NCBI RefSeq assembly: GCF_003319115.1
Contig: NZ_QOHF01000009.1
Span: forward strand, 100,676 to 164,675
Length of the DNA: 64,000 nucleotides
Origin: Geodermatophilus sp. TF02-6
GTDB lineage: Bacteria > Actinomycetota > Actinomycetes > Mycobacteriales > Geodermatophilaceae
Direction: 5' to 3'
Part shown: in pieces, positions 3,541-50,344 of the stretch
Layout of the letters: each line of letters starts with the position of its first letter
Numbering within the stretch: the stretch's first letter is position 1
Program-made: the position numbers and the translations under genes
The notes under the pieces: model-generated
What the model saw: only the letters and a program-made list of their open reading frames with translations
Database searches by the model: none
Told to the model about the DNA's origin: nothing

Positions 3541-4347
3541 GTGCACGCCTCCCTGATCATCGTCATCCTGGTGCTGCCCCTCCTCGTCGGTCTGTGGGTA
3601 CAGCACCGCCTGATCCAGCGGTCCCCGGACAGCGGGATGGGTGGGCTGTCGGTCAGCGACCTGATCGAGCCCGTCCGCACACTGGCGGTGCTGCTCCTCG
3701 CATTCGTGCTGGTCTCGGCCTACAGCTCGTACGACACCGCCAGCCAGCAAGCGGCGGCCGAAGCCGGCGCGGTCCAGGCGATGGCGGAGAGTGCGGCACT
3801 GCTGACCCCGGAGTCGCGCCGCGATGTGCTGGGCCCGTTGCAGTGCTACGCCCGAGCGGTCGCCGGGCCGGACTGGCGCGCGCAGGCTGAGGGCAGCGCG
3901 TTGTCCCCGATCGCCGATGCGGCATCCCACGGCATCGATGCAGCGCTCGCACGAGCGCGCAGCGACGAGCGCAACGTCGCCGTGGTCGAGCCGATCACGT
4001 TGGAGAACAACCGCCGCATCGAGGCGCGCATCCTGCGGGCCGAGGAGGGCCAACCCGCCGTCCCCGGTCAGGCGTGGACGCTGATGCTGGTCACGGTGGC
4101 CATCACGGTGGGCGTTGCGGCGCTGCTGGGCCATCCGCCGGTACACCGGCGTCTGCAGCTGGCCGTGCTCGTCGGGACAGTGGTCGTGTACGGCCTCTCC
4201 CTGCTCATCATCCAAGACCTCGACACTCCCTTCACCGGCCCGGCGAAGATCGAGCCCACCGCGATGCTCGACGTCGAACAGCGGATCGCCGCTCTGCCCG
4301 ATGGCACCGCAGTCCTCCCCTGCGACGGGCAAGGCCGCCTCCTCTGA
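3541..4347 (+). CDS. DUF4239-like membrane protein
   Basis: This 268-residue integral membrane protein has a predicted span at residues 3–20, a second around 45–62 and a pair near 180–225. The segment after span two (YSSYDTASQQAAAEAGAVQAMAESAALL), followed by a conserved soluble region, resembles the bestrophin-like DUF4239 family, in which a helix rich in Ala and Glu follows the second span. The start is a GTG at 3541 behind GAGGAG. Function is unknown; an anion channel role has been suggested for related folds. It stands alone between the hydrolase and an integrase remnant. Confidence 0.6.
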   Translation: MHASLIIVILVLPLLVGLWVQHRLIQRSPDSGMGGLSVSDLIEPVRTLAVLLLAFVLVSAYSSYDTASQQAAAEAGAVQAMAESAALLTPESRRDVLGPLQCYARAVAGPDWRAQAEGSALSPIADAASHGIDAALARARSDERNVAVVEPITLENNRRIEARILRAEEGQPAVPGQAWTLMLVTVAITVGVAALLGHPPVHRRLQLAVLVGTVVVYGLSLLIIQDLDTPFTGPAKIEPTAMLDVEQRIAALPDGTAVLPCDGQGRLL

Positions 4348-4398
4348 AGATCATCAAGGGGAGCAACACCTGCAGCTCATCGAGCTGGGCGGCGCTGA

Positions 4399-5146
4399 GC
4401 CGGCTTCGACCGCAAGGTCGACACCCAGCGCTGGCTCGACGAGGTCGCCGCTGCCGTGGTCACCGGCTCCTACGTCGACCCGGGTGCGGGCCGGCAGACC
4501 TTCGCCCAGTACTACGCCGAGTGGTCGGCCCGCCAGGTGTGGGCGCCCGGCACCGAAACGGCGATGAGCCTGGCCGCTCGCACGTCGAGCACCGGGTCGA
4601 GAGCGTGGTCAACCGCGGCCTGGCGCCGGGCACGTGCACACCCGGATCAACGACGTCCGCGCTGTCCTGCGCGGCGCCGTCGCCGACCGGGTGATCCCGC
4701 GCGACCCGAGCGAGGGCATCGCCCTCCCCTGCCGCCGCACGGCCGCCACCATGACGCTGCGGCAGGTGTGCCTCGCGCCGTCACTGGTCGACCTGCTGGC
4801 CGAGCACGTCGCCGCCCACTGCCCGGAGGGCACCTGGCTCTTCACCGGAGAAGCGGGACAATCCCCGCACCAGAACACCGTCGGCTACCGCTGGCGCACC
4901 ACCATCCGGGCCGCCGACCTCACGGGCGTGAAGCTGCACGACCTCCGGCACTCCTAGGCCTCCGGGCTCATCGCCTCCGGCTGCGACGTCGTCACCGTCC
5001 AGCGGGCCCTCGGGCACGCCAGCGCCACCACGACGCTGAACACCCACAGCCACCTCCGGCCTCCCGCGGAGGACCGCACGAGGCGGGCCGTCGATGAGGC
5101 GTGGAGTGCCATCACCGTGCCATCGGAGCGGTCAGCGACTCGCTGA
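4399..5146 (+). pseudogene. Degraded tyrosine recombinase (phage-type integrase)
   Basis: Remains of an actinophage-type integrase are spread over three frames. From 4405 one frame reads FDRKVDTQRWLDEV and TFAQYYAEWSARQVW. Near 4570 it shifts to a frame reading SHVEHRVESVVNRGLAPGT. Near 4630 it shifts again to HTRINDVRAVLRGAVADRV. The catalytic box LHDLRHS is followed by a TAG at 4955–4957 where a Tyr codon is normally found, then ASGLIASGCDVVTVQRALGH continues. The nucleophile region reads NTHSHL instead of the usual NTYSHL, so the catalytic tyrosine is also lost. The N-terminal domain is missing because a stop lies at 4396. No other phage gene and no tRNA attachment site is seen nearby. Confidence 0.85.
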
Positions 5147-10057: not shown

Positions 10058-10081
10058 CACGTCACCCGGCAGGGTGACGTG
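10058..10081. promoter_or_regulatory. Perfect 10-bp inverted repeat before the inositol-phosphate synthase operon
   Basis: CACGTCACCC (10058–10067) is followed by GGCA and then GGGTGACGTG (10072–10081), an exact inverted repeat ending 51 bases before the first gene of the nine-gene operon. Its size and place fit a repressor or activator operator, or a hairpin in the mRNA leader. The rest of 9824–10132 shows no gene. No T-run follows, so a simple terminator for the left-hand region is unlikely, and the left-hand gene reads away in any case. Confidence 0.55.
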
Positions 10082-10132
10082 ACGTGCGTCGCCCCCGGTC
10101 GCGCACGACCCAGTCGAGTACAGGAGGACGCC

Positions 10133-11356
10133 TTGTCCGGTGAACCACGACGGGTGGGGATGGCCGTGGTCGGCCTCGGAGGAGCGGTCGCCACGACCGC
10201 CGTCGCGGGCCTGGAGCTGCTGCGCTCCGGTTCGAGCGACACCTCGGGGCTGCCCCTCGCAGGAGTGGAGGTGGACGGCGTCCCCGTCGAGGAAGCGACC
10301 GGGCTGGTGCCCTACACCGACCTCGTCGTCGGCGGCTGGGACCTCGACGGCTCCGACCTGCGCAAGGCCGCCGAGCAGCACGGCGTCCTGGACTCCGCCC
10401 AGCTGGAGCGGGCCGCGGCCCACCTCTCCTCGGTGACGCCCTGGGCGGCGGCCGGGGACGCCGACTTCTGCCGCAACGTGACCGGCGGCAACGTGGTGCT
10501 GGCCGAGACCCGCCGGGCCCAGGTCGACGCCGTCCGGGCCGACCTGGCCCGCTTCCGCGAGGAGCAGCGGCTCGACGGGCTGGTCCTGGTCAACCTGGCC
10601 TCGACCGAGCGCTGGCCCGACCCGTCGGCGCCCGCCCTGCAGTCGGCCGAGGCGTTCGAGGCCGGCCTGGACGCCGACGACCGCTCGATCACCCCGGCGA
10701 TGGTCTACGCCTACGCCGCGATCGCCGAGGGCGTCGGCTACGTCAACTTCACCCCCTCGCTGGCCGCCGACGTCCCGGCCCTGGTGGAGCTGGCCGAGCA
10801 GCGCGGGGTGCCCGTCACCGGCAAGGACGGCAAGACCGGGCAGACCATGATCAAGACGGTGCTGGCGCCGGCCTTCCGCAGCCGGGCGCTGACCGTCGAG
10901 GGCTGGTACTCGACCAACATCCTGGGCAACCGCGACGGCCTGGCCCTCGAGGACCCGGACTCGCTGTCGAGCAAGCTGCAGACCAAGGGCAACGTGCTCG
11001 ACTCGATCCTCGGCTACCCGGTCGAGGACCACCTGGTGCGCATCGACTACTACCGGCCGCGCGGCGACGCGAAGGAGGCCTGGGACGCGATCGACCTGGT
11101 CGGCTTCCTCGGCCGGCGCATGCAGGTCAAGATCGACTTCCAGTGCCGCGACTCGATCCTGGCCGCGCCGCTGGCCATCGAACTGGCCCGCCTCACCGAC
11201 CTGGCCCAGCAGCGCGGCGAGCGCGGCGTGCAGACCCAGTTCGGCTGGTTCTTCAAGGCGCCGATGACCCCCGACGGCAACACGCCCGAGCACGCCCTGC
11301 ACCGGCAGGAGCGCGTGCTGCTCGACTGGCTGGCCGCGGGCCCGGCCGACCGGTGA
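10133..11356 (+). CDS. myo-Inositol-1-phosphate synthase family protein
   Basis: This 407-residue protein is a NAD-dependent inositol-3-phosphate synthase, converting glucose 6-phosphate to inositol phosphate. A Rossmann-type start (AVVGLGGAVATTAVAGLELL) is followed by GLVPYTDLVVGGWDL, the catalytic segment KDGKTGQTMIKTVLAPAF, then WYSTNILGNRDGLAL and DHLVRIDYYRPRGDAKEAWD. The start is a TTG at 10133 because AGGAGG lies at 10122–10127 with five bases of spacing and the Rossmann fold begins ten residues in. It opens the nine-gene operon and overlaps the next gene by GTGA. The presence of a synthase in a biosynthetic operon suggests dedicated inositol-phosphate supply rather than general metabolism. 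Confidence 0.88.
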   Translation: MSGEPRRVGMAVVGLGGAVATTAVAGLELLRSGSSDTSGLPLAGVEVDGVPVEEATGLVPYTDLVVGGWDLDGSDLRKAAEQHGVLDSAQLERAAAHLSSVTPWAAAGDADFCRNVTGGNVVLAETRRAQVDAVRADLARFREEQRLDGLVLVNLASTERWPDPSAPALQSAEAFEAGLDADDRSITPAMVYAYAAIAEGVGYVNFTPSLAADVPALVELAEQRGVPVTGKDGKTGQTMIKTVLAPAFRSRALTVEGWYSTNILGNRDGLALEDPDSLSSKLQTKGNVLDSILGYPVEDHLVRIDYYRPRGDAKEAWDAIDLVGFLGRRMQVKIDFQCRDSILAAPLAIELARLTDLAQQRGERGVQTQFGWFFKAPMTPDGNTPEHALHRQERVLLDWLAAGPADR

Positions 11357-12252
11357 CGGGCGGGCCCCCCGCCCTCGCGCGGCTGCGGCCCCTGCTGGCC
11401 GAGATCGGCGACGCCAAGCGGGTCCGCGTCGCCGACGCCCCCGGGTCGCTGGCGGAGCAGGCCTTCGCCCGCGCCTGGGGGCGGCTGGTCGCCGGCGAGG
11501 ACGCGGCCGCGGTCGCGCTGTCGGAGGCGGCGGCAGCGGTGGCCCGGGCCCGGCTGGCCGGCATCGACGGCGCGGTGCTGCGGACGGCCGGCCTGTCCGA
11601 CGGCGAGGCGCGTGAGGTGTTGCGCCGCGGGTTCGACGAGGTCGCCGGGCCGGTCGACCCCGCGCTGCGGGACACGCTGCGGGAGGCCCTGCCCCTCGTC
11701 GTCCCGGCGCCGGAGCCGCCCGCGCTCGCCGGGCGGCTCAACCGCCAGCCGCGCGCCGGGGCCACGGCCCCGGGCCGGGCGCGGGTGATCGTCGAGCCCC
11801 CGGAGAGCCACGGCGACCACTGCCTGACCGTGGCGGTCTACGGGGTGCTCGTCGCGCCGGTGTTCGGCGCCGACCCGGTGCCGCCGTTCCTCGTCGGGCT
11901 GGCCCACCACCTGCACAACGGAGCGCTGCCCGACGCCGGGTTCGCCGGCGAGGTGCTGCTCGGGTCCGCGCTGCCGCGGGTGATGGCCACGCTGGAGGAG
12001 CGCGAGCTGGCGGCCCTGCCCGCGCCGCTGGCCCGGCGGCTGCGCGCGGTGCTCGGGCTGCGCGCGGACGCCGGGGCTCGTGAGTCGCAGGCCTTCCACG
12101 CCGCCGACGTCCTGGACCGGGTGCTGCAGGTGCACCACCACGCGCGCGCCGCGGGGTTCACCGCCGACCAGGCGCTCGACGACCTCGAGCTCGTGCACGC
12201 CGGGCCGGTGCAGGCCTTCCACCTCGACGTGCTGGCGGCGGCAGGCCTGTGA
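11353..12252 (+). CDS. HD-domain-like protein, function unknown
   Basis: This 299-residue soluble protein is rich in Ala and Leu. Histidine clusters resemble a divergent HD phosphohydrolase core: HGDHCLTVAVYGVLV near residue 155, GLAHHLHNGALPDAGFAGE near 180 and FHAADVLDRVLQVHHHARAAGF near 250. If so it would bind one or two metal ions and might remove a phosphate from the pathway intermediate; both points are inference. The GTG start overlaps the stop of the inositol-phosphate synthase (GTGA), and its own end overlaps the methyltransferase. I do not recognise a named family. Confidence 0.6.
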   Translation: MTGGPPALARLRPLLAEIGDAKRVRVADAPGSLAEQAFARAWGRLVAGEDAAAVALSEAAAAVARARLAGIDGAVLRTAGLSDGEAREVLRRGFDEVAGPVDPALRDTLREALPLVVPAPEPPALAGRLNRQPRAGATAPGRARVIVEPPESHGDHCLTVAVYGVLVAPVFGADPVPPFLVGLAHHLHNGALPDAGFAGEVLLGSALPRVMATLEERELAALPAPLARRLRAVLGLRADAGARESQAFHAADVLDRVLQVHHHARAAGFTADQALDDLELVHAGPVQAFHLDVLAAAGL

Positions 12253-13340
12253 GCGGCTCTGTCGACCTGCGGCTGCGCCGTGCGGGAGCGGACGGCGACG
12301 CCGCGACCGCTGCCGCACCCGACGTCCCGGTGGTCGACGGCATCCCGTTCGCCCGCGCGGGGCGCGACGAGCTGCGCGCGCAGGTGGCCGGCCTGCTCGC
12401 CCGCGGCGAGGTCGACCGGGCCCGGGTGGCGCTGCTCGCCGACGCCGACGACTGGTGGACCGAGCCGGCCCCGCCCCCCGAGCAGCTGGCCCGCGTACCG
12501 GCCGCGACCACGCTGCGGGAGGCGATGGGGCTGCTCGGCATGGGCCGGGTGGGCGACTACTTCGCCCACCGCTGGTCCGACCCGACCCACCTGGCCGGGC
12601 TGGCGCTGCTGCAGCAGCACTGGCCGGGGAGGAGGCCGGTGGTGGACGTCGCCTGTGGCACCGGCACGCACCTGCGCGAGCTGGCCCGCCGCGGCTGCAC
12701 CGACCTCACGGGCGTCGACGTCGTGTGGGCCAAGCTGTGGCTGGCGCGGCGGTTCGTCTGCGCAGGAGCGCGCTACGTCTGCGCCGACGTCACCGCCGCG
12801 CCCGACCTGGCCGCCGCCCACGGCGTCCGGGCCCCGGCCTACGTGCTCTGCCACGACGCCTTCTACTTCCTGCGGGACAAGCCGGCCGCGGCGGCGGCGA
12901 TGCGCGCGCTGGCCGGGGACGGCGGCACCGTCGTCGTCGGGCACGCGCACGTCGCCGACCCGCACGGCGAGCCGCTGACGCCGGAGGGCTACGCCGCGGT
13001 GCTCGGCACCGACCTGCTCTACGACGACGCGGAGCTCACCGCCGCGCTGCTCGCCGGCCGCCCGCCGCGGCCGGCCGCAGCGACGGACCTGCACGAGAGC
13101 GAGGCGGTCGCCCTGGTCGCCGGCGACCCGCGCTCCCCCGCCCCGGTCGACCTCGGCGAACCGCTCGGGCCGCTGCGCCGCAACCCGCTCTACGTCGACG
13201 GCGTGCTGCGTTGGCCCAGCGAGCGCTACGCGGCCGAGTACGGCCCCCGGTCGGGGTACCTGCCGGCCCGCTGGCCCGACCCGCTGCCCGCCGACGCCGC
13301 CCGCCGCCGCCTGCTGGTCGACCTGCCGGAGGCGTGGTGA
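12249..13340 (+). CDS. SAM-dependent class I methyltransferase
   Basis: This 363-residue protein has a canonical SAM-binding motif I, VVDVACGTGTHLRELARRG (about residues 134–152), followed by LTGVDVVWAKLWLARRF and a motif region YVCADVTAAPDL. The first 100 residues form a separate N-terminal region (WTEPAPPPEQLARVPAATTLREAMG) and the last 100 carry conserved-looking Tyr/Trp/Arg patches (NPLYVDGVLRWPSERYAAEYGPRSGYL). The substrate is unknown; methylation of the inositol glycoside or its precursor is inferred from the operon. Both ends overlap neighbours by four bases. Confidence 0.82.
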   Translation: MSGSVDLRLRRAGADGDAATAAAPDVPVVDGIPFARAGRDELRAQVAGLLARGEVDRARVALLADADDWWTEPAPPPEQLARVPAATTLREAMGLLGMGRVGDYFAHRWSDPTHLAGLALLQQHWPGRRPVVDVACGTGTHLRELARRGCTDLTGVDVVWAKLWLARRFVCAGARYVCADVTAAPDLAAAHGVRAPAYVLCHDAFYFLRDKPAAAAAMRALAGDGGTVVVGHAHVADPHGEPLTPEGYAAVLGTDLLYDDAELTAALLAGRPPRPAAATDLHESEAVALVAGDPRSPAPVDLGEPLGPLRRNPLYVDGVLRWPSERYAAEYGPRSGYLPARWPDPLPADAARRRLLVDLPEAW

Positions 13341-14428
13341 CCCCCATCCCCGTCCAGCGCGACCGCCGCTCCGGCACGACCACGTGGCCGGAGCGGTACG
13401 AGTTCGTCGACTGCTCCGTGGAGAGGAGACCGGTGCGCACCGTCGGCTGGGGCATCGCCGGCTGCGGCTGGGTGGCCCGCGACCACGCGCTGCCCGCGCT
13501 GCGGGGGACGTGGGGCGCGCGGGTCGTCGCGCTGCACGACCGCGACCCGGCGGCCATGGCCCGCATGGACGTCGAGGCGCCGCGGTGCGCCGACCTCGAG
13601 GCCTTCCTCAGCACGCCGGGGCTGGACGCGGTCTACGTCGCCGTCCCCAACTCCGCGCACCGCGCGGTGGTCGAGGCGGCGGTCGCGGCCGGCAAGGCGG
13701 TGCTCTGCGAGAAGCCCCTGGCCGCCGACGTCGCCGACGCCGAGGCGATGGTCGCCGCTGCCGAGGAGGCCGGCGTGCTCCTGGGGACGGCGTACGACCA
13801 GCGCTGGCACCCCGCGCACGTGCGGCTGCGCGAGCTGGTCCCCGAGCTGGGCACGGTCACCGCCGTCCGGATCGTCTACTGCTGCTGGCTGCCGGCCGAG
13901 TGGACCCCCGACGGCCGGCCGCACGACAACTGGCGGGTCGACCGCACCCGGGCCGGCGGCGGCGCGGCGATCGACCTGGCTCCGCACGGCCTGGACCTGG
14001 CCGGCGTCCTGCTCGGGGAGGACGCCGTCGAGCTGCGGGCGCTGCTGCAGCGGCGGGTGCACGACTACCCCGTCGACGACGGCGCGCTGCTGTCCGGGCG
14101 CACCGCCGGCGGCGTGCTGGTCGACCTGCACGTCGCGTTCAACACACCCGACGCGCTGCCCCGCCGCCGCCTGGAGGTCGTCGGCACCCGCGGGTCGGCG
14201 GTCGCCGTCGACACGATGGGGCAGAGCGCGGGGGGCTCGCTGACGCTGTACCGACCCGAGCCGGTGGCGGTCCCCTTCGCCGCCGGCACCACGCCCTTCG
14301 CCGCGCAGTTCGCCGCCTTCACCGCCGCGGTCGCCGGAATCGCGCCCTGGCCGTACGACGCCGCCCGCGACCTGGCCCTGCACCGGCTGCTGCTCACCGC
14401 CCTCGCCGAGCCCGGAGGCCCGCCGTGA
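13337..14428 (+). CDS. Gfo/Idh/MocA family oxidoreductase
   Basis: This NAD(P)-dependent sugar or inositol dehydrogenase has a Rossmann start (GWGIAGCGWVARDHALPAL), the family segment VYVAVPNSAHRAVVEAAVAAGKAVLCEKPLA split over residues about 95–125 with the EKP lysine, and DLAPHGLDLAGVLLG with the usual late Asp/His pair. The family includes inositol 2-dehydrogenases, which fits an operon starting with inositol-phosphate synthase. The GTG at 13337 overlaps the methyltransferase stop, and third-base GC stays near total up to 13433, so the longer 363-residue form is preferred. A GTG at 13433 behind GAGAGGAG gives a 331-residue alternative. Confidence 0.85.
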   Translation: MTPIPVQRDRRSGTTTWPERYEFVDCSVERRPVRTVGWGIAGCGWVARDHALPALRGTWGARVVALHDRDPAAMARMDVEAPRCADLEAFLSTPGLDAVYVAVPNSAHRAVVEAAVAAGKAVLCEKPLAADVADAEAMVAAAEEAGVLLGTAYDQRWHPAHVRLRELVPELGTVTAVRIVYCCWLPAEWTPDGRPHDNWRVDRTRAGGGAAIDLAPHGLDLAGVLLGEDAVELRALLQRRVHDYPVDDGALLSGRTAGGVLVDLHVAFNTPDALPRRRLEVVGTRGSAVAVDTMGQSAGGSLTLYRPEPVAVPFAAGTTPFAAQFAAFTAAVAGIAPWPYDAARDLALHRLLLTALAEPGGPP

Positions 14429-15339
14429 CCCCGCCACCCGCGACCCCGCCACCCGCGACCACCCCCGCCACCAACCCCTACCGCGGCCTGCTGCCCGACC
14501 TGCCCGCCTGGGCCTGCACCAACTGCGGGCACTGGCAGCGCTGGCCGGCCCCCGGGCCGCTGGTCTGCCCGGTGTGCGCCGACGTCCGCAACGCGCTGCC
14601 GGAGAACGGCTTCGAGTTCGTCACGCCGGAGCAGGCCGACGCGCTGGTCACCGGCTTCTGCCGGCCCACCGCGGTCGAGGGGGTCACCGAGTTCGGCACC
14701 GAGCCCCGCTTCGGCCTGGACAGCCGCGGGTGGGTGGTCGAGACCGACGCCGGGCTGGTCGGCTTCGAGTGCGCCCCCTGGTACACCGCCGACATGCTCG
14801 CCCGGCTGCGGGAGATGGCGGCCGCCGAGGGCGGCTTCGACGTCCTGGCCTCCAGCCACGTGCACGGCTACGGCGCGCTGTGGCAGCTGCAGGCCGAGCT
14901 CGAACCCCGGGTGGTCTGCGTCGGCGTCCGGGACCTGGAGTGGACCAAGGCCTTCCGGGTCACCTGGCCGGCCGACGACGTGCTCGAGCTCGCCCCCGGC
15001 CTCACCCTGCACCGCACCGGCGGGCACTTCCCCGGGCACTCGGTGCTGCACGACCGCCGCCGCGGGGTGCTCTTCTGCGGCGACTCGCTCAAGGTCGACC
15101 TCGACGAGGCCGGCGACCCGGTCGGCCTGTCGGCGCACAAGGCGTTCCACGCCCAGATCCCGCTGTCCCACGGCGAGCTGCGCGAGTACCTGACGGTGGT
15201 CGGAGCGCTGGAGTTCGACACGGTGGCCACCCCGTTCGAGCTGGTCCGCGGGGTCACCACCGACCACGTCGTCCACCTGGTGCAGCGGCTGCTGTCCGGG
15301 CCGCCGGACGCCGCCCCCGTCGCGCTGGACGAGCTGTGA
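14425..15339 (+). CDS. Metallo-beta-lactamase-fold protein with N-terminal zinc ribbon
   Basis: This 304-residue protein has a Pro/Thr-rich start and then a four-cysteine zinc-ribbon or rubredoxin-like knuckle (CTNCGHW … CPVCADVRN, residues about 31–55). An MBL-fold domain follows: SSHVHGYGAL replaces the usual HxHxDH, with GGHFPGHSVLH and LFCGDSLKVD as later metal-ligand regions. The motif lacks the standard Asp of HxHxDH, so the metal site may hold one ion or be altered. MBL-fold enzymes hydrolyse esters, lactones, thioesters or phosphodiesters; the ribbon could add redox or protein contacts. Both ends overlap neighbours. Confidence 0.78.
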   Translation: MTPPPATPPPATTPATNPYRGLLPDLPAWACTNCGHWQRWPAPGPLVCPVCADVRNALPENGFEFVTPEQADALVTGFCRPTAVEGVTEFGTEPRFGLDSRGWVVETDAGLVGFECAPWYTADMLARLREMAAAEGGFDVLASSHVHGYGALWQLQAELEPRVVCVGVRDLEWTKAFRVTWPADDVLELAPGLTLHRTGGHFPGHSVLHDRRRGVLFCGDSLKVDLDEAGDPVGLSAHKAFHAQIPLSHGELREYLTVVGALEFDTVATPFELVRGVTTDHVVHLVQRLLSGPPDAAPVALDEL

Positions 15340-16826
15340 CCGCCACCGCGACCACGGCGCCGCAGCGCTACCTGGACTCGTTCCCCAGCCCCGTCCAGGA
15401 GTTCGCCGTCGAGGGCATCGACGTCCTCGATGTGCCGCTGCACAGCGCGGTGCTGCCGCCCTCGCCCGCGCACCCGGGCGGCAGCGGCCTCGGCTACGGC
15501 GCCACCCGCGAGGAGGCGCGCACCGGAGCGCTGGGCGAGATGGCCGAGATGGCCCTGTCGGTGCGCGCGCACCAGGGCGTGCGGCGCGAACAGGGCTCGT
15601 ACGCGCAGATGGCCCGCCGGCACGGCGGCGACCGGGTGGCCGACCCGCGCACCCTGTGCCTGGAGGCCGGCAGCCCCTACGACGACGACCGGCCGCTGCA
15701 GTGGCTGCCCATGACCCGGCTCCGGGACGGCGAGCGCGTGCTGGTCCCCGCCGAGCTGGTCGCCTCCGCCCCGCAGGACCTGCCCGGCGACCCGCCGCCC
15801 GACGGCTGGCTGACCACGGTCATCACCAACGGGCAGGGCGCGGGCTTCGACGCCGGGCGCGCCGTGGCGCACGCCCTGCTGGAGGTCCTGCAGCGCGACG
15901 GCAACGCCACGACGTTCCGCGCCATGGACGCCGGTGTCGTCGTCGACCTCGCCGGCCTGCGCGACCCCGACGCGCTGGCGCTGCTCGACCGGATCGACGC
16001 CGCCGGCATCGACGTCGTGGTCAAGCTGGCCAGCACCGACCTCGGCGTCGTCGACGTCTACGCGGTCGGCTGCTCCCGCGACGGGTCGGAGCCGGTGCCG
16101 GTGATGGCGACCGCGTGCGGCGAGGCGGCGCACCCCGACCGGGACACCGCCGTCCGCAAGGCGCTGCACGAGTTCGCCTCGGCGCGCAGCCGCAAGGCCT
16201 TCATGCACGGCCCGTTCGACGTCGTGCTGCCCGCGACGCCCGCGGGCTACCTGGAGTCCTGGCGCGGCGGGCACCCCCCCGAGCGGCTGGTCGAGGAGGA
16301 CCGCGCGCTGGAGGCGATGCTCGCCTGGACCCGGATGGGCACCGACGCCCTGGTCGGCCTGCTGCAGGACACCGTGCTGTCCCGGCGCTCGACGGTGCGC
16401 CTGGCCGACCTGCCGACCTGGTCCGGCTCCTCGGACGGGGCGGACCTGCACGCGACGGTGACCGGCGCGGTGCAGGCAGCCGGGTTCGACGTGCTGGTCG
16501 AGCTGCAGCCCTCGATCGGCGAGGCGGTGGCGGCCAAGGTGCTCGTCCCCGGGCTGGAGGTGGAGACGATGTCCTACGGGCGGATCGGTGAGCGCGGGGT
16601 GCGCCGGCTGGCGGAGCGCGGCGACCCGCTGGTCGCCGTGGGCAGGCACCCCGGCGGCGAGGACCCCGGCGGCTGGGCGCGGGTGCACCTGACCGCCGAC
16701 GCGCAAGCGCGCCTGGGCGGGCCGGCCTGGTTCGACCGCGCCGGCGCCGACCGGCGGGTGGGCGCGCTCTACGCCCTCTACCGCGAGCCCGGCCGGCACG
16801 TGGTCGCGGAGGCGCTGGCCCGATGA
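15336..16826 (+). CDS. YcaO-domain protein (stand-alone)
   Basis: This 496-residue protein has the YcaO ATP-binding signature in two parts: GYGATREEARTGALGEMAEM (about residues 53–72) and GQGAGFDAGRAVAHALLEVL followed by QRDG (about 167–190), where most homologues have ERD. YcaO enzymes activate an amide oxygen by phosphorylation so that a nucleophile can replace it, giving azolines, thioamides or amidines. No E1-like ocin-ThiF partner, TfuA or precursor peptide is visible here, so the substrate is probably a small molecule; this is inference. The extra C-terminal 130 residues after ATPAGYLESW are unassigned. Overlaps flank both ends. Confidence 0.85.
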   Translation: MTATATTAPQRYLDSFPSPVQEFAVEGIDVLDVPLHSAVLPPSPAHPGGSGLGYGATREEARTGALGEMAEMALSVRAHQGVRREQGSYAQMARRHGGDRVADPRTLCLEAGSPYDDDRPLQWLPMTRLRDGERVLVPAELVASAPQDLPGDPPPDGWLTTVITNGQGAGFDAGRAVAHALLEVLQRDGNATTFRAMDAGVVVDLAGLRDPDALALLDRIDAAGIDVVVKLASTDLGVVDVYAVGCSRDGSEPVPVMATACGEAAHPDRDTAVRKALHEFASARSRKAFMHGPFDVVLPATPAGYLESWRGGHPPERLVEEDRALEAMLAWTRMGTDALVGLLQDTVLSRRSTVRLADLPTWSGSSDGADLHATVTGAVQAAGFDVLVELQPSIGEAVAAKVLVPGLEVETMSYGRIGERGVRRLAERGDPLVAVGRHPGGEDPGGWARVHLTADAQARLGGPAWFDRAGADRRVGALYALYREPGRHVVAEALAR

Positions 16827-17659
16827 CCCACCTGCGCTACGCCTACAACACCAACGGGCTGACCTCCCACCGGCTCGACGACGCGCTGTCCCTGCTCGCC
16901 GACACCGGCTACGCGGGCGTGGCGCTCACCCTCGACGTGGTCCACCTCGACCCGTTCGCGCCCGACGCGTTCGCGCAGGCGGAGAAGGTCCGGGCGCGCT
17001 GCGACGAGCTGGGCCTGGGCGTCGTCGTCGAGACCGGCGCCCGGTTCCTGCTCGACCCGCGGGCCAAGCACGAGCCGACCCTGGTCACCGCCGACCCCGA
17101 CGGCCGGGCGCGGCGGCTGGCCTACCTGCGGCTGGCCTGCGAGCTGGCCGGGGTCCTCGACGCCGAGGCGGTGAGCTTCTGGGCCGGCGTCCCCCGGCCG
17201 GGGGTGGACCGCGACCGGGCCTGGGGCTGGCTGACCGACGGCGTCCGCGCGCTGGTCGACAGCCACGGCGACCGCTCGTACGCCCTCGCCGTCGAGCCCG
17301 AGCCGGGGATGCTGGTCGAGGACTGCGCCGGGTGGGCCCGGCTGGCCACGGAGGTCCCGGGCCTGACCCTGGCGCTGGACACCGGGCACTGCGTCGTCGC
17401 CGGCGAGCACGCCCCCGAGGAGGCGGTCGCGGCGTTCGCCCCGCACCTGGGCACGGTCGCCGTCGAGGGCATGCGCCGGGGCGTGCACGACCACCTGCCC
17501 CTCGACGAGGGGGACGTCGACCTGCCCGCGGTGCTCCGGGCGCTGCGGACGACGGGCTTCGAGCGGCTGGTCACCCTCGAGCTCTCCCGCGACGGGCACC
17601 GGGCGCACGAGATGGTGCCGCGCTCGATCGCGACCCTGAGGGAGGCCGAGGGAGCGTGA
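16823..17659 (+). CDS. TIM-barrel sugar/inositol isomerase-epimerase-like protein
   Basis: This 278-residue protein fits the xylose-isomerase-like TIM-barrel superfamily. It starts YAYNTNGLTSHRLDDALSLL, continues VVVETGARFLLDPRAKHEPT, has YALAVEPEPGMLVEDCAGW with a metal-type Glu, then LTLALDTGHC with Asp/His and VAVEGMRRGVHDHLPLDEGD, and ends LVTLELSRDG. Relatives include IolE/IolI-type inosose enzymes, which again points at an inositol or inosose substrate. The ATG overlaps the YcaO stop (ATGA) and the last codons overlap the glycosyltransferase start. Confidence 0.8.
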   Translation: MTHLRYAYNTNGLTSHRLDDALSLLADTGYAGVALTLDVVHLDPFAPDAFAQAEKVRARCDELGLGVVVETGARFLLDPRAKHEPTLVTADPDGRARRLAYLRLACELAGVLDAEAVSFWAGVPRPGVDRDRAWGWLTDGVRALVDSHGDRSYALAVEPEPGMLVEDCAGWARLATEVPGLTLALDTGHCVVAGEHAPEEAVAAFAPHLGTVAVEGMRRGVHDHLPLDEGDVDLPAVLRALRTTGFERLVTLELSRDGHRAHEMVPRSIATLREAEGA

Positions 17660-18864
17660 GGATCTGCTTTGTCAGCCGGCGGTACTGGCCGGCGGTCAGC
17701 GGCATGAGCGTGTACGCGGAGAACCTGCTGCGCGAGCTGGTCGCCCTCGGCTGCGACGTGACGCTGGTCAGCCAGTACCGCGACGACGAGGCCGGCACGC
17801 GGGTGTACGGCGGCGGCCCGCCCCCGCCGTCCCGCGTGCCCGCCGGTGTGGAGGTGCACGCGCTGCCCAGCCGCGGCGAGACCGTCGTCCCCGCCGACTG
17901 GGAGGGCGACATCGCCGAGATCGTGCGCACCGTCGTCGACCTGCACGCCCAGCGGCCCTTCGACGTCCTGCACGCCCAGTACGGCTACCCGCCGGGCCTG
18001 GCCGTGCTGGCCGCCGCGCGGGAGACCGGGCTGCCGACCGTGGTGAGCATCCAGGGCGGCGACGGGCACTGGGTGGGCACCTGCTGCACCACCCACGCGT
18101 CGGCGATGCGCACGGTGGTGGCCGCCTCGAGCGCGGTGCTCATCGGCAGCGCCAGCTTCCGCGACGAGGTGGTGGGCAACCTGCACTGCGACCCGGCCCG
18201 CTTCACGATCGTCCCCGGCGCCACCGACACCCGGCGGTTCACCCCCGCCGAGCGGCCGCTGGGCGCGCTGCGCGAGCCCCCGGTCCTGCTGTTCCACGGC
18301 CGGGTCGACCGGCGCAAGGGCGTGCTCGACCTGCTCGAGGCGCTGCCCGACGGCGTCCGCCTGGTCGTCTCCGGCATCGGCCCGGACCTGGACGAGGCGA
18401 AGGCCCGCGCCGACGAGCGGACGACGTTCCTCGGCTACGTCCCGCCCGACGAGGCGCCTGCGGTGTACCGCTCGGCCGACGTGTTCGTCAGCCCGACCTA
18501 CAGCGAGGGGTTCAGCAACACCCTGCTCGAGGCGATGGCCAGCGGGCTGCCGACGGTGAGCACCGACAGCGTCGGCGTCGTCGACTGCCTGCGGCACGAG
18601 GAGAACGGGCTGCTGCACGCCCCCGGCGACGTCGCGGGGCTGCGTGCCGCGCTCGAGCGGCTGCTCGCCGACGCCGACCTGCGGGCCCGGCTGGCGACGA
18701 CGGCGCTCGAGGATGTGCGCCGGCTGTACTCCTGGCCGGTGCTGGCCCGCTCGATCGACGCGGTGTACCGGCAGGTCGCGGGCACCGCGCCGGACCTGGA
18801 CTGGGCGATGCCGGCCGAGGTCGACCTCTCCTGCCGGTTCCGCTCGGCCGCGCACCTGCTGTAG
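17656..18864 (+). CDS. GT4-family glycosyltransferase
   Basis: This 402-residue GT-B enzyme has an N-terminal acceptor domain (MRICFVSRRYWPAVSGMSVYAENLL) and a donor domain with HGRVDRRKGVLDLLEAL and the nucleotide-sugar motif SEGFSNTLLEAMASGLP (two glutamates seven residues apart), then STDSVGVVDCL. GT4 includes MshA, which joins N-acetylglucosamine to inositol phosphate in mycothiol synthesis. With an inositol-phosphate synthase at the operon head and a PIG-L deacetylase next door, an MshA-like reaction is the natural guess. Donor and acceptor cannot be read directly. The GTG start overlaps the upstream stop. Confidence 0.87.
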   Translation: MRICFVSRRYWPAVSGMSVYAENLLRELVALGCDVTLVSQYRDDEAGTRVYGGGPPPPSRVPAGVEVHALPSRGETVVPADWEGDIAEIVRTVVDLHAQRPFDVLHAQYGYPPGLAVLAAARETGLPTVVSIQGGDGHWVGTCCTTHASAMRTVVAASSAVLIGSASFRDEVVGNLHCDPARFTIVPGATDTRRFTPAERPLGALREPPVLLFHGRVDRRKGVLDLLEALPDGVRLVVSGIGPDLDEAKARADERTTFLGYVPPDEAPAVYRSADVFVSPTYSEGFSNTLLEAMASGLPTVSTDSVGVVDCLRHEENGLLHAPGDVAGLRAALERLLADADLRARLATTALEDVRRLYSWPVLARSIDAVYRQVAGTAPDLDWAMPAEVDLSCRFRSAAHLL

Positions 18865-18875
18865 AGGGTGTCCCG

Positions 18876-19619
18876 ATGCGTGTCATCGCGGTCAGCCCGC
18901 ACCTCGACGACGCCGCGTTCTCCGCCGGCGGCACCCTGGCGGCGCTGGCCGCGGCCGGCCACGAGGTCAGCGTGCTCACCTGCTTCACCGCGAGCGTGCC
19001 CGACCCGTCCGGCTTCGCGCTGGCCTGCCAGCTGGACAAGGGGCTGCCCGCCGACGTCGACTACCTGGCCCTGCGCCGCGCCGAGGACGCCGCGGCGATG
19101 GCCGTGCTCGGCGCGACGCCGGTGCACCTGGGCCTGCCCGAGGCGCCGCACCGCGGCTACACCAGCGCCGCCGACCTGTTCGCCGGCGTCCACCCGGGCG
19201 ACGACGTGTGGCGGGTGCTGGCCGGGCGGCTGGCCGGCGAGGACGCCGACCTGTGGCTGGCGCCGCAGGCGCTCGGCGGTCACGTCGACCACCTGCAGGT
19301 GCTGCGGGCGGTCGCCGTGCTCGACCGGCCGGTGCTGTGGTGGCGCGACAGCCCCTACGTGCTGCGCGACCCGGCCGCGCTGCCCGGCCCCGACCTGCCC
19401 GGCGGGCTGGGTGAAGTGCGGCTGCCGCAGGACCTCGACCGGCGCGCGGAGGCCTGCGCCTGCTACGCCACGCAGCTCGGCTTCCAGTTCGGCGGGGTCG
19501 CGGCCATGCGCACGGTGCTGGCCGGCCTGCCCGAGGTGCTGCTGGGCGGGAACCGGGTGCGCGCCGTCCTCGACCGGACCACGGCCGCAGGGGGTGCCGC
19601 GGCGCCGGCGTCGTCCTAG
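18876..19619 (+). CDS. PIG-L family deacetylase
   Basis: This 247-residue zinc-dependent N-deacetylase has the family motif SPHLDDAAFSAGG (residues 7–19, with the His-Asp-Asp metal and base residues) and HVDHLQV (near residue 133) for the third ligand. PIG-L enzymes remove acetyl from N-acetylglucosamine attached to inositol; MshB of mycothiol synthesis is the actinobacterial example. It closes the operon 11 bases after the glycosyltransferase, with AGAGGGTG as ribosome site. Its TAG stop forms part of a -10-like TAGCCT for the next gene. Confidence 0.88.
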   Translation: MRVIAVSPHLDDAAFSAGGTLAALAAAGHEVSVLTCFTASVPDPSGFALACQLDKGLPADVDYLALRRAEDAAAMAVLGATPVHLGLPEAPHRGYTSAADLFAGVHPGDDVWRVLAGRLAGEDADLWLAPQALGGHVDHLQVLRAVAVLDRPVLWWRDSPYVLRDPAALPGPDLPGGLGEVRLPQDLDRRAEACACYATQLGFQFGGVAAMRTVLAGLPEVLLGGNRVRAVLDRTTAAGGAAAPASS

Positions 19620-19992: not shown

Positions 19993-21504
19993 ATGGACCG
20001 GCTGCTGGAGCCCGAGCGCTGCTACCGCGCGGTCGCCAGCCGCGACGCCCGCTTCGACGGCTGGTTCGTCACCGCCGTGGCCACGACCGGCATCTACTGC
20101 CGCCCCTCCTGCCCGGCCCGCACGCCCCTGGCCCGCAACGTCACCTTCTTCTCCACCGCGGCCGCCGCGCAGGGCGCCGGGTATCGCGCCTGCCGCCGCT
20201 GCCGGCCCGACGCCGTCCCCGGCTCGCCCGAGTGGGACGTCCGCGCCGACGTCGTCGCCCGCGCCATGCGGCTCATCGCCGACGGCGAGGTGGAGCGCTC
20301 CGGCGTCCCCGGGCTGGCCGCCCGGCTCGGCTACTCCGAACGCCAGCTGCACCGGCTGCTGACCGCCGAGCTCGGCGTCGGCCCGCTGGCCCTGGCCCGC
20401 GCCCAGCGCGCCGAGACCGCGCGGCTGCTGATCGAGACCACCGACCTGTCGATGACCGACATCGCCTTCGCCGCCGGGTTCGCCAGCATCCGGCAGTTCA
20501 ACGACACCGTGCGCGAGGTCTTCGCCCTCACCCCCACCGAGCTGCGCCGCCTGGTGCACGGCCTGCACGCAGGCGGCGTCCCGGGCTGGCTGACCCTGCG
20601 GCTGGCCGTCCGCGCTCCCTTCGCGGCGGACGAGGTGCTGCTCTTCCTCGGCGCGCACGCCGTCCCCGGCCTGGAGGAGTGGGACGGGACGACGTTCTCC
20701 CGCGTCCTCGACCTGCCGCACGGGCCCGGCGTCGTCCGGCTCTCCCCCGCTGCGGACGGCGGCGCCGCGGTCATCGCCCGGCTCAAGCTGACGGCGCTGC
20801 GCGACCTCGGCGTGGCGGTGGCCCGCTGCCGTCGGCTGCTCGACCTCGACGCCGACCCGGTCGCGGTCGACGACGTCCTCGGCGCCGACCCGGCGCTGGC
20901 CGGGCTGGTGGCCGGCGCGCCCGGCCGGCGGGTGCCCGCCTCCCCCGACGCCGACGAGCTCGCCGTCCGCGCCGTCATCGGCCAGCAGGTCTCCCTCGCC
21001 GGGGCCCGGACGCTCACCGCCCGCCTGGTGCGCGCCGCGGGCACGCCGCTGCCCGAGCCGGTCGGCACGCTGACCTGCGTCTTCCCGCGGCCGGCCGCCC
21101 TCGCCGAGGCCGACCTCACCGCCGTCGGGCTCACCGGCACCCGCCGGCGCACGGTGCACGCGCTCGCCGCCGCGCTCGCAGACGGCTCGGTGTCGCTCGA
21201 CCCCGGCGCCGACCGCGAGGAGGCCGGCCGGGCGCTGCTCGCCGTCCCCGGGATCGGCCCGTGGACCGCCGCCCTCGTCGCGCTGCGCGGGCTGGCCGAC
21301 CCCGACGTGTGGCTGCCCGGCGACCTCGCGCTGCGCCGGGCACTGGCCGCCCTGGGCAGCTCCGACGCCGACGCCGCCACCCGCTGGCGGCCCTGGCGGT
21401 CCTACGCCGTCCTGCACCTGTGGGCGCTGGCCGCGCCTCGTCTGTTCACCCGCCCACCCACCGCAACCACCTGCCGTCCCCCCTCTGACAGGAGCGCCTC
21501 ATGA
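19993..21504 (+). CDS. Ada–AlkA fusion: methylphosphotriester sensor and 3-methyladenine glycosylase
   Basis: This 503-residue protein joins three parts. The Ada zinc domain (about 1–80) carries YCRPSCPARTP and CRRCRPD, four Cys of which the first is the methyl acceptor in Ada. An AraC-type helix-turn-helix (about 85–180) reads GVPGLAARLGYSERQLHRLL and MTDIAFAAGFASIRQFNDTVRE. The AlkA domain (about 190–490) has the N-terminal AlkA fold, AVIGQQVSLAGARTL and the HhH-GPD core VPGIGPWTAALVAL with WLPGDLALRRAL containing the catalytic Asp. It repairs alkylated bases and activates the response. The start follows CATGCT by six bases (leaderless). The end overlaps the MGMT start by ATGA. Confidence 0.93.
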   Translation: MDRLLEPERCYRAVASRDARFDGWFVTAVATTGIYCRPSCPARTPLARNVTFFSTAAAAQGAGYRACRRCRPDAVPGSPEWDVRADVVARAMRLIADGEVERSGVPGLAARLGYSERQLHRLLTAELGVGPLALARAQRAETARLLIETTDLSMTDIAFAAGFASIRQFNDTVREVFALTPTELRRLVHGLHAGGVPGWLTLRLAVRAPFAADEVLLFLGAHAVPGLEEWDGTTFSRVLDLPHGPGVVRLSPAADGGAAVIARLKLTALRDLGVAVARCRRLLDLDADPVAVDDVLGADPALAGLVAGAPGRRVPASPDADELAVRAVIGQQVSLAGARTLTARLVRAAGTPLPEPVGTLTCVFPRPAALAEADLTAVGLTGTRRRTVHALAAALADGSVSLDPGADREEAGRALLAVPGIGPWTAALVALRGLADPDVWLPGDLALRRALAALGSSDADAATRWRPWRSYAVLHLWALAAPRLFTRPPTATTCRPPSDRSAS

Positions 21505-22022
21505 CCCCGCCGCCCGCCCGCTCCGCCACCGTCGCCACCCCGCCCGGGCCGTTCACCGTGGTCACCGGCCCGGACGACGTCGTCCTCGCCAGCGGCTGGA
21601 CCGCCGACGTCGCCGAGCTGGTGCCCGTCGTCCACCGGTCGCTTCGGCCCACCCGGGTGGAGCAGGTCGATCGCCTGCCCGTCCTCGACGCTGTCGAGGC
21701 CTTCCTCAGCGGTGACGTCGCGGCCGTCGACCGCGTGGCGGTGCGGCAGCGGTCCGGCCCGTTCCTCGAGGAGGCCTGGGAGGTGCTGCGCACCGTGCCG
21801 GCCGGCGCGCCGGACACCTACGCCGCCTTCGCGGCGCGCTGCGGCCGCCCGGCGGCGGTGCGGGCGGCGGCCAACGCCTGCGCGCGCAACGCCGCGGCGC
21901 TGTTCGTCCCCTGCCACCGGGTGCTCGGCTCCGACGGCGGCCTGGGCGGGTTCCGCTGGGGGACGCCGGTCAAGCGCTGGCTGCTCGACCACGAGGCGGC
22001 GCACGCGGCGGTCCCCGTCTGA
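21501..22022 (+). CDS. ogt: Methylated-DNA–protein-cysteine methyltransferase
   Basis: This 173-residue O6-alkylguanine-DNA alkyltransferase has the active site PCHRVLGSDGGLGGFRWG near residue 137, with the acceptor Cys in PCHRV, and the helix-turn-helix before it ([20 protein letters not shown]). It moves the methyl group from O6-methylguanine to its own cysteine in a suicide reaction. The ATG overlaps the Ada–AlkA stop, and AGGAG at 21490–21494 inside that gene is the ribosome site, so both alkylation-repair genes are co-translated. The first 60 residues are a variable N-terminal domain. Confidence 0.93.
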   Translation: MTPPPARSATVATPPGPFTVVTGPDDVVLASGWTADVAELVPVVHRSLRPTRVEQVDRLPVLDAVEAFLSGDVAAVDRVAVRQRSGPFLEEAWEVLRTVPAGAPDTYAAFAARCGRPAAVRAAANACARNAAALFVPCHRVLGSDGGLGGFRWGTPVKRWLLDHEAAHAAVPV

Positions 22023-49835: not shown

Positions 49836-50344
49836 GGGGTGCCCTCGCCGGCGCGGGCGGCGACGAACTGGTCGTAGTCGCGGTAGTAGTCGCCCTCGTC
49901 GTACCTGCGGGAGGCGAGCACCAGGCAGACGCTGCCGCTGGAGAAGTCGTCCAGCTCCCGCCACGTCATCGGCGGCACGTAGAGCCCGAAGTACGACCGG
50001 TTGAGGAAGAAGCGTTCCCGCCTGGTCCCGTCGTCGACGACCACGTCGAAGCTGCCGGCGGCGGCGATGATCAGCTGTTCCAGCTCCCGGTGCGCGTGCC
50101 CACCCCTCGACTCGCCCCCGGGGACGTCGTACAGGTAGTAGACGCGCTCGATGTCGAACGGGACGTGCTCGCTACCTTCGATGAAGGTGAGGTTGCCCCG
50201 GCAGTCGGCCACCCGGGGGAGGTCGACGATCCGGCACCCGAGCGCGGCGCGTCCCGGGGGCCAGCTCCGGTCGCCGGCCCGGCGCCCCAGGGGACGCACC
50301 CGGCGCTCGACGCGGACGTCCGGTGGCAGCTCTCCGACGGTCAT
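49832..50344 (-). CDS. FdtA/QdtA-like sugar 3,4-ketoisomerase (cupin)
   Basis: This 170-residue cupin has the FdtA pattern: LPRVADCRGNLTFIEGSEHV, FDIERVYYLYDVPGGESRGG, HAHRELEQLIIAAAGSFDVV with the cupin histidines, FFLNRSYFGLYVPPMTWREL and VLASRRYDEGDYYRDYDQF. It isomerises dTDP-4-keto-6-deoxyglucose to the 3-keto sugar, ahead of the aminotransferase. About 35 residues before VDLPRVADC are extra and Arg-rich, so the ATG at 50344 may be slightly too far upstream. No dTDP-glucose synthase or dehydratase is encoded here; these must be elsewhere. Confidence 0.88.
   Translation of the reverse strand: MTVGELPPDVRVERRVRPLGRRAGDRSWPPGRAALGCRIVDLPRVADCRGNLTFIEGSEHVPFDIERVYYLYDVPGGESRGGHAHRELEQLIIAAAGSFDVVVDDGTRRERFFLNRSYFGLYVPPMTWRELDDFSSGSVCLVLASRRYDEGDYYRDYDQFVAARAGEGTP

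What the first reader, a model, noticed from the sequence alone, without database searches (positions are those of the whole stretch)
10058..19619. Nine-gene operon that may make an undescribed inositol glycoside with YcaO chemistry
Seen: nine genes on one strand, with seven consecutive 4-base ATGA/GTGA overlaps and a last gap of 11 bases, encoding inositol-phosphate synthase, HD-like protein, methyltransferase, Gfo/Idh/MocA dehydrogenase, zinc-ribbon MBL-fold protein, YcaO, TIM-barrel isomerase, GT4 transferase and PIG-L deacetylase. Known: in mycothiol synthesis Ino1, MshA (GT4) and MshB (PIG-L) make glucosaminyl-inositol; Gfo/Idh and TIM-barrel proteins act on inositol and inosose; YcaO activates amide bonds. 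Inference: the product is a modified (pseudo)disaccharide built on inositol, with an oxidised or isomerised ring, a methyl group and an amide-derived thioamide, amidine or ring. I know of no described pathway with this set.
Basis: partly seen in the sequence, partly recalled or inferred. Interest (0 to 1): 0.9.

Follow-up and report, generated by a model that had tools for sequence, protein, structure and literature searches.

The report
Cross-phylum YcaO cyclitol-sugar operon
Nine tightly packed genes, kept in the same order in three bacterial phyla and in altered form in three more, are predicted to make an undescribed small molecule joining an inositol-like ring to an aminosugar, with a YcaO enzyme that likely works on that molecule and not on a peptide.

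Summary
In detail: nine genes (10133-19619), seven consecutive 4-base overlaps, last gap 11 bases. It is not the mycothiol pathway: the genome has its own mycothiol INO1 and MshC elsewhere, and g1, g8, g9 score far below the INO1, MshA, MshB cut-offs. A peptide (RiPP) system is unlikely: no partner protein among the nine, and YcaOs of the same tree sit beside sugar ABC importers. Of 80 relatives kept from named genomes, 34 carry all nine genes in order, in Actinomycetota, Pseudomonadota and Myxococcota; reduced versions occur in Chloroflexota, Armatimonadota and Bacteroidota. g2 is in 108 of 111 Methylobacterium genomes. New link: the Ino1 + TIM-barrel pair also occurs in actinobacterial ebo clusters, in place of the cyclase EboD, and in one Armatimonadota MAG an EboD-type cyclase replaces Ino1 with no g7 found. 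The most likely product is an oxidised cyclitol joined to an aminosugar, with YcaO activating a carbonyl. Product, order of steps and function are inferred; a UV-screening role is an untested lead.

The parts
10133..11356 (+). g1: inositol-3-phosphate synthase family (Ino1), 407 aa, TTG start behind AGGAGG
   Evidence: PF07994 214 bits, PF01658 115 bits; best solved relative 7nwr inositol-3-phosphate synthase, 290 bits; mycothiol INO1 model only 41 of 638 bits
11353..12252 (+). g2: HD-domain-like protein, 299 aa, possible phosphohydrolase
   Evidence: No Pfam hit; profile of 16 sequences matches 2cqz E 1.8e-4 and 1xx7 E 0.0066; invariant H153, H156, H185, H186, D252
12249..13340 (+). g3: SAM methyltransferase, 363 aa; optional part of the cluster
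   Evidence: Methyltransf_25 34 bits; missing in L071, L082-L085, L088, L096 and Hymenobacter L140
13337..14428 (+). g4: Gfo/Idh/MocA oxidoreductase, 363 aa
   Evidence: PF01408 90 bits; invariant CEKP (C124-P127) and D213/H217; best solved relative 1,5-anhydro-D-fructose reductase 2glx
14425..15339 (+). g5: zinc ribbon plus metallo-beta-lactamase-fold protein, 304 aa
   Evidence: PF00753 28.8 bits; invariant C31, C34, C48, C51 and H145, H147, H201, D220; the usual DH pair of the HxHxDH motif (recalled) is not there
15336..16826 (+). g6: YcaO, 496 aa, the only YcaO found in the genome
   Evidence: PF02624 189 bits; one match in the genome; E183, R187-D188 and E279 align with MJ1094; C-terminal PxPxP in 0 of 28 sequences
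16823..17659 (+). g7: xylose-isomerase-like TIM barrel, 278 aa
   Evidence: PF01261 110 bits; invariant E158, D186, H189, H222, E253, shared with two ebo-cluster TIM barrels
17656..18864 (+). g8: family 4 glycosyltransferase, 402 aa
   Evidence: PF13692 112 bits, PF00534 108 bits; MshA 68 of 462.5 bits, BshA 72 of 273.7 bits
18876..19619 (+). g9: PIG-L family N-deacetylase, 247 aa
   Evidence: PF02585 52.6 bits; invariant SPHLDD and H136, D138, H139; MshB 18.2 of 224.35 bits
19629..19931 (+). g10: small HTH protein 9 bases downstream, possible regulator; not at this place in the relatives
   Evidence: PF01381 23.6 bits; roughly 1 kb from g9, or not found, in other Geodermatophilaceae loci

Best explanation
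This is a tightly packed nine-gene cluster, likely one operon and conserved in gene order across phyla, that is predicted to build a small glycosylated cyclitol, and its YcaO would likely activate a carbonyl of that small molecule and not of a peptide. Shown: gene content, overlaps, synteny, distribution, separate mycothiol genes, and conserved family motifs in g4, g7 and g9. Inferred: g1 makes an inositol phosphate; g2 removes a phosphate, here or later; g4 oxidises a ring hydroxyl to a ketone; g7 isomerises or dehydrates the keto-cyclitol; g3 adds a methyl group where present; g8 attaches an N-acetylhexosamine-type sugar and g9 removes its N-acyl group to free an amine; g6 spends ATP to phosphorylate a carbonyl oxygen (amide or vinylogous acid) that an amine then displaces. 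The cyclitol-making front end (g1 + g7) would be a cassette equivalent to EboD, used also by the ebo pathway.
For: All nine in order in 34 of 80 loci of named genomes, in three phyla; YcaO in 21 of 26 genomes of the genus. In 27 loci, 156 of the 176 junctions with a gap or overlap under 200 bases have a gap under 20 bases (overlaps included), 82 are exact 4-base overlaps, with starts set by script; distances of the genes correlate, r 0.47-0.89, without a control for species descent. Separate mycothiol INO1 (686 bits) and MshC (635 bits) in the same genome. EboD-type cyclase in the operon in place of Ino1 in Armatimonadota L096, no g7 found in that genome, its own AroB elsewhere. g7-like TIM barrels lie about 1 kb from ebo-type Ino1 in all 15 plasmid records listed, of 34 found; the ebo genes were looked at in one of these, L168. 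YcaOs beside carbohydrate ABC importers at four places of the YcaO tree.
Against: No metabolite, no enzyme assay. The Armatimonadota operon keeps g2 and g4 although sugar phosphate cyclases release phosphate and leave a ketone (recalled), so simple roles for g2 and g4 on inositol alone are doubtful. No g7 was found in Kineococcus G688, and all 14 Methylobacterium loci kept lack g5 at the locus. The EboD exchange in this operon is one case, from a MAG that may be incomplete; looking for a second case at L065 found none. The YcaO reaction is taken from the chemistry of distant YcaOs.
Confidence: 0.6

Rival explanations
1. The product is an inositol-derived UV screen that works like a mycosporine: inosose (g4) is dehydrated to a reductone or enolone (g7), O-methylated (g3), and YcaO makes the enaminone or imine with an amine, the job ATP-grasp enzymes do in mycosporines (recalled).
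For: EboD lies near EEVS and DDGS (passages of PMC5133447), and an EboD-type cyclase replaces Ino1 where no g7 is found. Many hosts come from leaves, air, rock, crust or lichen (record titles; otherwise recalled). Spore photoproduct lyase family proteins in 12 of 12 YcaO-bearing genomes tested, against 3 of 14 unmatched controls, 1 over cut-off; such genes lie beside the cluster or its YcaO in Actinomycetospora, Microvirga and Roseomonas and within 3 kb in Rubrobacter marinus. A review mentions UVA-absorbing compounds in Methylobacterium (passage), and g2 is in 108 of 111 genomes of that genus.
Against: g3 and g7 are each missing in some clusters; no spectrum; the lyase controls are not matched for phylum, and two of the 12 genomes (Microvirga) lack g2; hosts also include soil and marine bacteria (Corallococcus, Micromonospora, Rubrobacter marinus; recalled). 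The Methylobacterium genomics paper PMC8561711 shows no mention of YcaO or inositol.
Confidence: 0.25
2. YcaO makes a thioamide, thiazoline, oxazoline or cyclic amidine from the N-acyl group of the aminosugar, giving a glycosidase inhibitor or antibiotic of the trehazolin or allosamidin type (recalled).
For: Known YcaO chemistry on amides (recalled); a deacetylase goes with YcaO in both contexts: PIG-L (g9) in the cluster, NodB-like at five of seven importer-type loci.
Against: No sulfur donor, TfuA or E1-like partner among the nine; no PxPxP end (0 of 28); near-universal presence in Methylobacterium is unusual for an antibiotic; no exporter was shared across phyla in the flanks compared, although Methylobacterium L106 has an HlyD/MFS pair about 1.4 kb upstream.
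Confidence: 0.2
3. YcaO is a plain sugar or cyclitol kinase or ATP-dependent hydrolase used in both making and using the compound.
For: Importer-linked YcaOs stand where a sugar kinase would stand, and the seven such genomes tested lack g2.
Against: Known YcaOs release ADP and phosphate from an activated amide (recalled); no kinase activity of this kind is known to me.
Confidence: 0.15
4. A RiPP pathway with an unlinked precursor peptide.
For: YcaO family; SagD model 87 bits. A distant precursor was not searched for.
Against: No E1-like or TfuA protein among the nine and no room for a gene between them; sugar enzymes throughout; sugar importers beside sister YcaOs.
Confidence: 0.03
5. A mycothiol or other low-molecular-weight thiol variant.
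For: Ino1, GT4, PIG-L trio.
Against: Own mycothiol genes present; no cysteine ligase among the nine; equivalog cut-offs missed; present in Methylobacterium G423 and Corallococcus G424, where no mycothiol-type INO1 over cut-off was found.
Confidence: 0.05

Closest known systems
ebo cluster (eboA-F; PMC5133447 and PMC6282210, passages read)
   Same: Shares the cyclitol-forming front end: Ino1 + g7-like TIM barrel in the actinobacterial ebo clusters seen (L159, L160, L168), or EboD-type cyclase; the authors of PMC5133447 propose a cyclitol-derived product
   Different: No EboA, TatD, UbiA, EboE or pyrophosphatase here; glycosyltransferase, PIG-L, Gfo/Idh, MBL and YcaO instead
Mycothiol biosynthesis (INO1, MshA, MshB, MshC, MshD; recalled)
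   Same: Inositol synthase, GT4 and PIG-L deacetylase in one pathway
   Different: Different subfamilies, no cysteine ligase or acetyltransferase, adds HD, MT, Gfo/Idh, MBL, YcaO, TIM barrel; INO1 and MshC present elsewhere in the genome
Mycosporine-like amino acid biosynthesis (DDGS, O-MT, ATP-grasp; recalled)
   Same: Possible logic: cyclase, methyltransferase, ATP-dependent carbonyl activation
   Different: Ino1 instead of DDGS, YcaO instead of ATP-grasp, sugar enzymes added; not shown to make a UV absorber
YcaO enzymes of RiPPs and MJ1094 (McrA thioamidation)
   Same: YcaO family and ATP-site residues
   Different: No peptide substrate or partner protein seen; carbohydrate genes around it
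Inositol-derived aminocyclitol antibiotics (recalled: spectinomycin, streptomycin, hygromycin A)
   Same: Dedicated inositol synthase and inositol oxidation
   Different: No aminotransferase in the operon; YcaO and PIG-L present

Membership tests
Mycothiol pathway | g1 is the mycothiol INO1 (TIGR03450, 638 bits) | tested here: not met
   41.2 bits; true INO1 at G000:C47, 686.5 bits
Mycothiol pathway | GT4 is MshA (TIGR03449, 462.5 bits) | tested here: not met
   68.1 bits
Mycothiol pathway | PIG-L is MshB (TIGR03445, 224.35 bits) | tested here: not met
   18.2 bits
Bacillithiol pathway | BshA (TIGR03999, 273.7 bits) and BshB1 (TIGR04001, 182.5 bits) | tested here: not met
   72.4 and 18.2 bits
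RiPP / TOMM YcaO | SagD-type cyclodehydratase score (219.25 bits) and partner gene alongside | tested here: not met
   87.4 bits; no partner among the nine genes; PxPxP 0 of 28
RiPP / TOMM YcaO | precursor peptide | not tested
   No room inside the operon; small open frames elsewhere were not screened
YcaO superfamily | PF02624 over cut-off, ATP-site residues | tested here: met
   188.7 of 25.7 bits; motif residues conserved against MJ1094
ebo cluster | EboA, TatD, UbiA, EboE, pyrophosphatase genes | tested here: not met
   None among the nine by Pfam; EboE, UbiA and TatD queries matched only ebo-type loci of those held then
Inositol-3-phosphate synthase superfamily | PF07994 and PF01658 over cut-off | tested here: met
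   214.1 and 115.1 bits; 7nwr 290 bits
Mycosporine-like amino acid pathway | DDGS plus ATP-grasp ligase | tested here: not met
   No such Pfam hits among the nine; a DHQ-synthase-family cyclase only in L096
Mycosporine-like amino acid pathway | UV-absorbing cyclohexenone or imine product | not testable with these tools
   Needs chemistry
Inosose dehydratase IolE (for g7) | TIGR04379 over 290 bits | tested here: not met
   No hit for the window protein; Methylobacterium relative 27.4 bits

The most novel reading that the evidence does not exclude
A new class of bacterial UV-A sunscreen: an inositol-derived enolone condensed with an aminosugar by a YcaO, the first YcaO to build a chromophore on a free small molecule, spread through sun-exposed bacteria, almost universal in leaf-dwelling Methylobacterium, and scavenged by neighbours through a sugar importer with its own YcaO.
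Probability: 0.2. Interest if true: 0.93.

Novelty: new variant of a known kind. Interest (0 to 1): 0.72.

Why it matters
It puts a YcaO, known almost only from peptide chemistry (recalled), in a sugar and cyclitol pathway, and gives a concrete gene set in a genus that is easy to grow and mutate (Methylobacterium). It also suggests that Ino1 plus a TIM barrel and the unassigned cyclase EboD do interchangeable work, which would help to solve the ebo pathway that is involved in scytonemin export (abstract of PMC6282210).

Tried and rejected
Mycothiol, bacillithiol and ebo membership were tested and rejected; RiPP membership failed two of three tests and the third, a distant precursor, was not run. 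g2 as a simple inositol-phosphate phosphatase was weakened by its retention beside an EboD-type cyclase. A virus link: 11 stretches matched a pattern in viral contigs, none encodes a relative. The YcaOs beside ABC genes were first read as a separate family; the tree (midpoint root, for drawing only) places them at four spots among nine-gene YcaOs, three of them in starred groups, the Nocardioides one in an open fork. Aureimonas L113 was first counted with them, but its permease matches are weak and about 6 kb away; its cluster L162 lacks YcaO, so L113 may supply it. L065 (Goekera) lacks g1 at the locus; an EboD exchange there was looked for and not found. In the distance correlation two odd rows were dropped (g4 of L036, g9 of L077) and rows with an internal stop were skipped without a tally. 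In one search junctions wider than 200 bases were left out. In the gene count, hits under 60 bits or on the other strand were not counted. Of the nine genomes of the Rubrobacter family with the YcaO, six show cluster neighbours and three only the YcaO with a NodB-like gene. Five haloarchaeal plasmid records have an Ino1 of the ebo-type search without a g7 match. Literature: the listings of searches showed no description of this gene set; several lists were capped (one search lists 12 of 959). The library lacks most subscription journals and all preprints. Only passages were read of PMC12573535, PMC8561711, PMC8776678, PMC5133447 and PMC6282210; Yoshida 2017 was seen only as a citation.
Full report
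Observation. The window (75% GC, a Geodermatophilus-type genome of 4.7 Mb) holds nine genes on the + strand from 10133 to 19619 with seven consecutive 4-base overlaps and an 11-base last gap. The first gene most likely starts at TTG 10133 behind AGGAGG. One YcaO was found in the genome.

Not mycothiol. The same genome carries a mycothiol INO1 over its cut-off (686.5 bits, C47) and MshC (635 bits, C2). g1, g8 and g9 score 41, 68 and 18 bits against INO1, MshA and MshB models with cut-offs of 638, 462.5 and 224. g1 is closest among solved structures to an inositol-3-phosphate synthase, 7nwr (290 bits).

Conservation. 21 of 26 genomes of the genus have the YcaO; of 396 genomes drawn from the phylum, 10 do: the window's own and nine of one family, that of Rubrobacter, of which six show cluster neighbours. 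A scan of named genomes found 203 relatives and kept the best 80. Of these 80, 34 carry all nine genes in the window's order, 57 carry at least seven, 56 of those in order. Complete sets occur in Geodermatophilaceae, Micromonospora and Rubrobacter (Actinomycetota), Skermanella, Aerophototrophica, Pararoseomonas and Acetobacteraceae (Pseudomonadota) and Corallococcus terminator (Myxococcota). Reduced or rearranged sets occur in Chloroflexota (L071), Armatimonadota (L096; 1 of 251 genomes of that phylum has g2) and on a Hymenobacter plasmid (L140, Bacteroidota). In the genus of Methylobacterium sp. BTF04, 108 of 111 genomes have g2; all 14 Methylobacterium loci among the 80 lack g5 at the locus. 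Clusters stand on plasmid-collection records of Roseomonas, Hymenobacter and M. aquaticum; YcaO and g7 also match a Methylobacterium bullatum record. In 27 loci, 156 of the 176 junctions under 200 bases have gaps under 20 bases or overlap, and 82 are exact 4-base overlaps; distances between genes correlate with r from 0.47 (g2-g7) to 0.89 (g3-g4), without a control for species descent.

Conserved residues. g4 keeps the EKP lysine and the D213/H217 pair; g7 keeps E158, D186, H189, H222 and E253; g9 keeps PHLDD and HxDH; g5 has two invariant CxxC and keeps H145, H147, H201 and D220 but lacks the second-metal pair. Assigning these residues to catalysis rests on recalled knowledge of the families.

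The cyclitol cassette. In L096 the first gene is not Ino1 but a DHQ-synthase-family sugar phosphate cyclase overlapping g2 by 4 bases, matching PRK06203 at 549 bits, cut-off 333. Relatives at about 50% identity stand in ebo operons beside EboE, UbiA and TatD genes in Deinococcus L166 and Ketogulonicigenium L167. The genome, a MAG, has a separate AroB-like gene and no g7 at E 1e-40. Conversely, ebo clusters of Micromonospora (L159), Nocardioides (L160) and Streptomyces (L168) have an Ino1 (38% identical to g1 in L159 and L160) and a TIM barrel (45-49% identical to g7 there); no EboD match was found in L159 or L160, and none is annotated in L168. In the plasmid collection 33 records have a g7-like protein: four are nine-gene hosts, and the other 29 have the same genus counts as the bacterial records found with the ebo-type Ino1; all 15 Ino1 records listed, of 34, have g7 about 1 kb away. 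The five haloarchaeal Ino1 records have no g7 match. Of the 17 EboD-type plasmid records, 16 belong to genera without a g7 match in that collection. So, on these records, g7 goes with Ino1 and not with EboD. The passages of PMC5133447 that I read place EboD near EEVS and DDGS and propose a cyclitol-derived product, and a search of its main text for inositol found none.

YcaO outside the cluster. Relatives in Microvirga (L104), Nocardioides (L068, L080), Antarcticirhabdus (L108), a Chloroflexota MAG (L086) and a Rubrobacter-family genome (L039) stand beside genes of carbohydrate ABC importers; in Microvirga L105 only the NodB-like gene was checked. The NodB-like deacetylase is present at five of these seven loci. 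They branch at four places among nine-gene YcaOs, three of them in starred groups. None of the seven genomes has g2, so they seem to lack the pathway; they may import its product or an intermediate (inferred). In Aureimonas the cluster lacks YcaO and the gene stands elsewhere (L113, L162). In Actinomycetospora succinea the cluster is split in two about 20 kb apart.

Mechanism. Likely order (inferred): inositol phosphate, phosphate removal, oxidation to an inosose, isomerisation or dehydration, optional methylation, attachment of an N-acetylaminosugar, N-deacetylation, ATP-dependent activation of a carbonyl by YcaO with capture by an amine. Against a simple version: L096 keeps g2 and g4 beside an EboD-type cyclase; no g7 was found in Kineococcus (its g1 lies beyond the contig end held).

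UV lead. Many carriers are bacteria of lit surfaces (recalled habitats and record titles), but not all: Corallococcus, Micromonospora and Rubrobacter marinus are soil or marine (recalled). All 12 YcaO-bearing genomes tested have a spore photoproduct lyase family protein, against 3 of 14 control genomes, 1 over cut-off; the controls are not matched. Such genes lie beside the cluster or YcaO in Actinomycetospora L161, Microvirga L104 and L105 and Roseomonas plasmid L141, within 3 kb in Rubrobacter marinus L077 and about 8 kb away in Aureimonas L113. A review says Methylobacterium contains UVA-absorbing compounds (passage of PMC12573535). This is a lead, not evidence of function.

Verdict. A real, widespread biosynthetic operon, undescribed as far as the searches reach; cyclitol core well supported, glycoside part reasonable, YcaO step and biological role open.

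Noticed in passing
L159, L160, L168:6992-14167: Actinobacterial ebo clusters have an Ino1 and a g7-like TIM barrel instead of EboD.
   Followed up: yes
L104:8675-9784, L141:15753-17874, L077:962-2077, L161 about 3925-5022: Spore photoproduct lyase family radical SAM proteins, two subtypes by score, lie beside or near the cluster or its YcaO in several lineages.
   Followed up: partly
L068, L080, L104, L105, L039: YcaO with a NodB-like deacetylase, beside a carbohydrate ABC importer where checked, in genomes without g2.
   Followed up: partly
window 19993-22022: Ada-AlkA fusion and O6-methylguanine DNA methyltransferase genes downstream of the operon (alkylation repair).
   Followed up: no
L141:14203-15765, L120:15997-17535: A glucan glucosyltransferase MdoH gene overlaps g9 on the Roseomonas plasmid and follows further on in Pararoseomonas; MdoG stands near the cluster in Skermanella L069.
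   Followed up: no
L106:1020-4039: HlyD and MFS genes, a possible exporter pair, about 1.4 kb upstream of g1 in Methylobacterium.
   Followed up: no
L079:5193-8196, L096:6504-11470: Two YcaO genes in one cluster in Corallococcus terminator and in the Armatimonadota bacterium; reduced clusters in L087 and L100.
   Followed up: partly
L140:10072-11120: On the Hymenobacter plasmid g4 is annotated as two genes, and the g8 match is also in two pieces with no gene listed there.
   Followed up: no
window 48720-49964: DegT/DnrJ/EryC1 aminotransferase among flagellar genes, perhaps for flagellin sugar; not linked to the operon.
   Followed up: no
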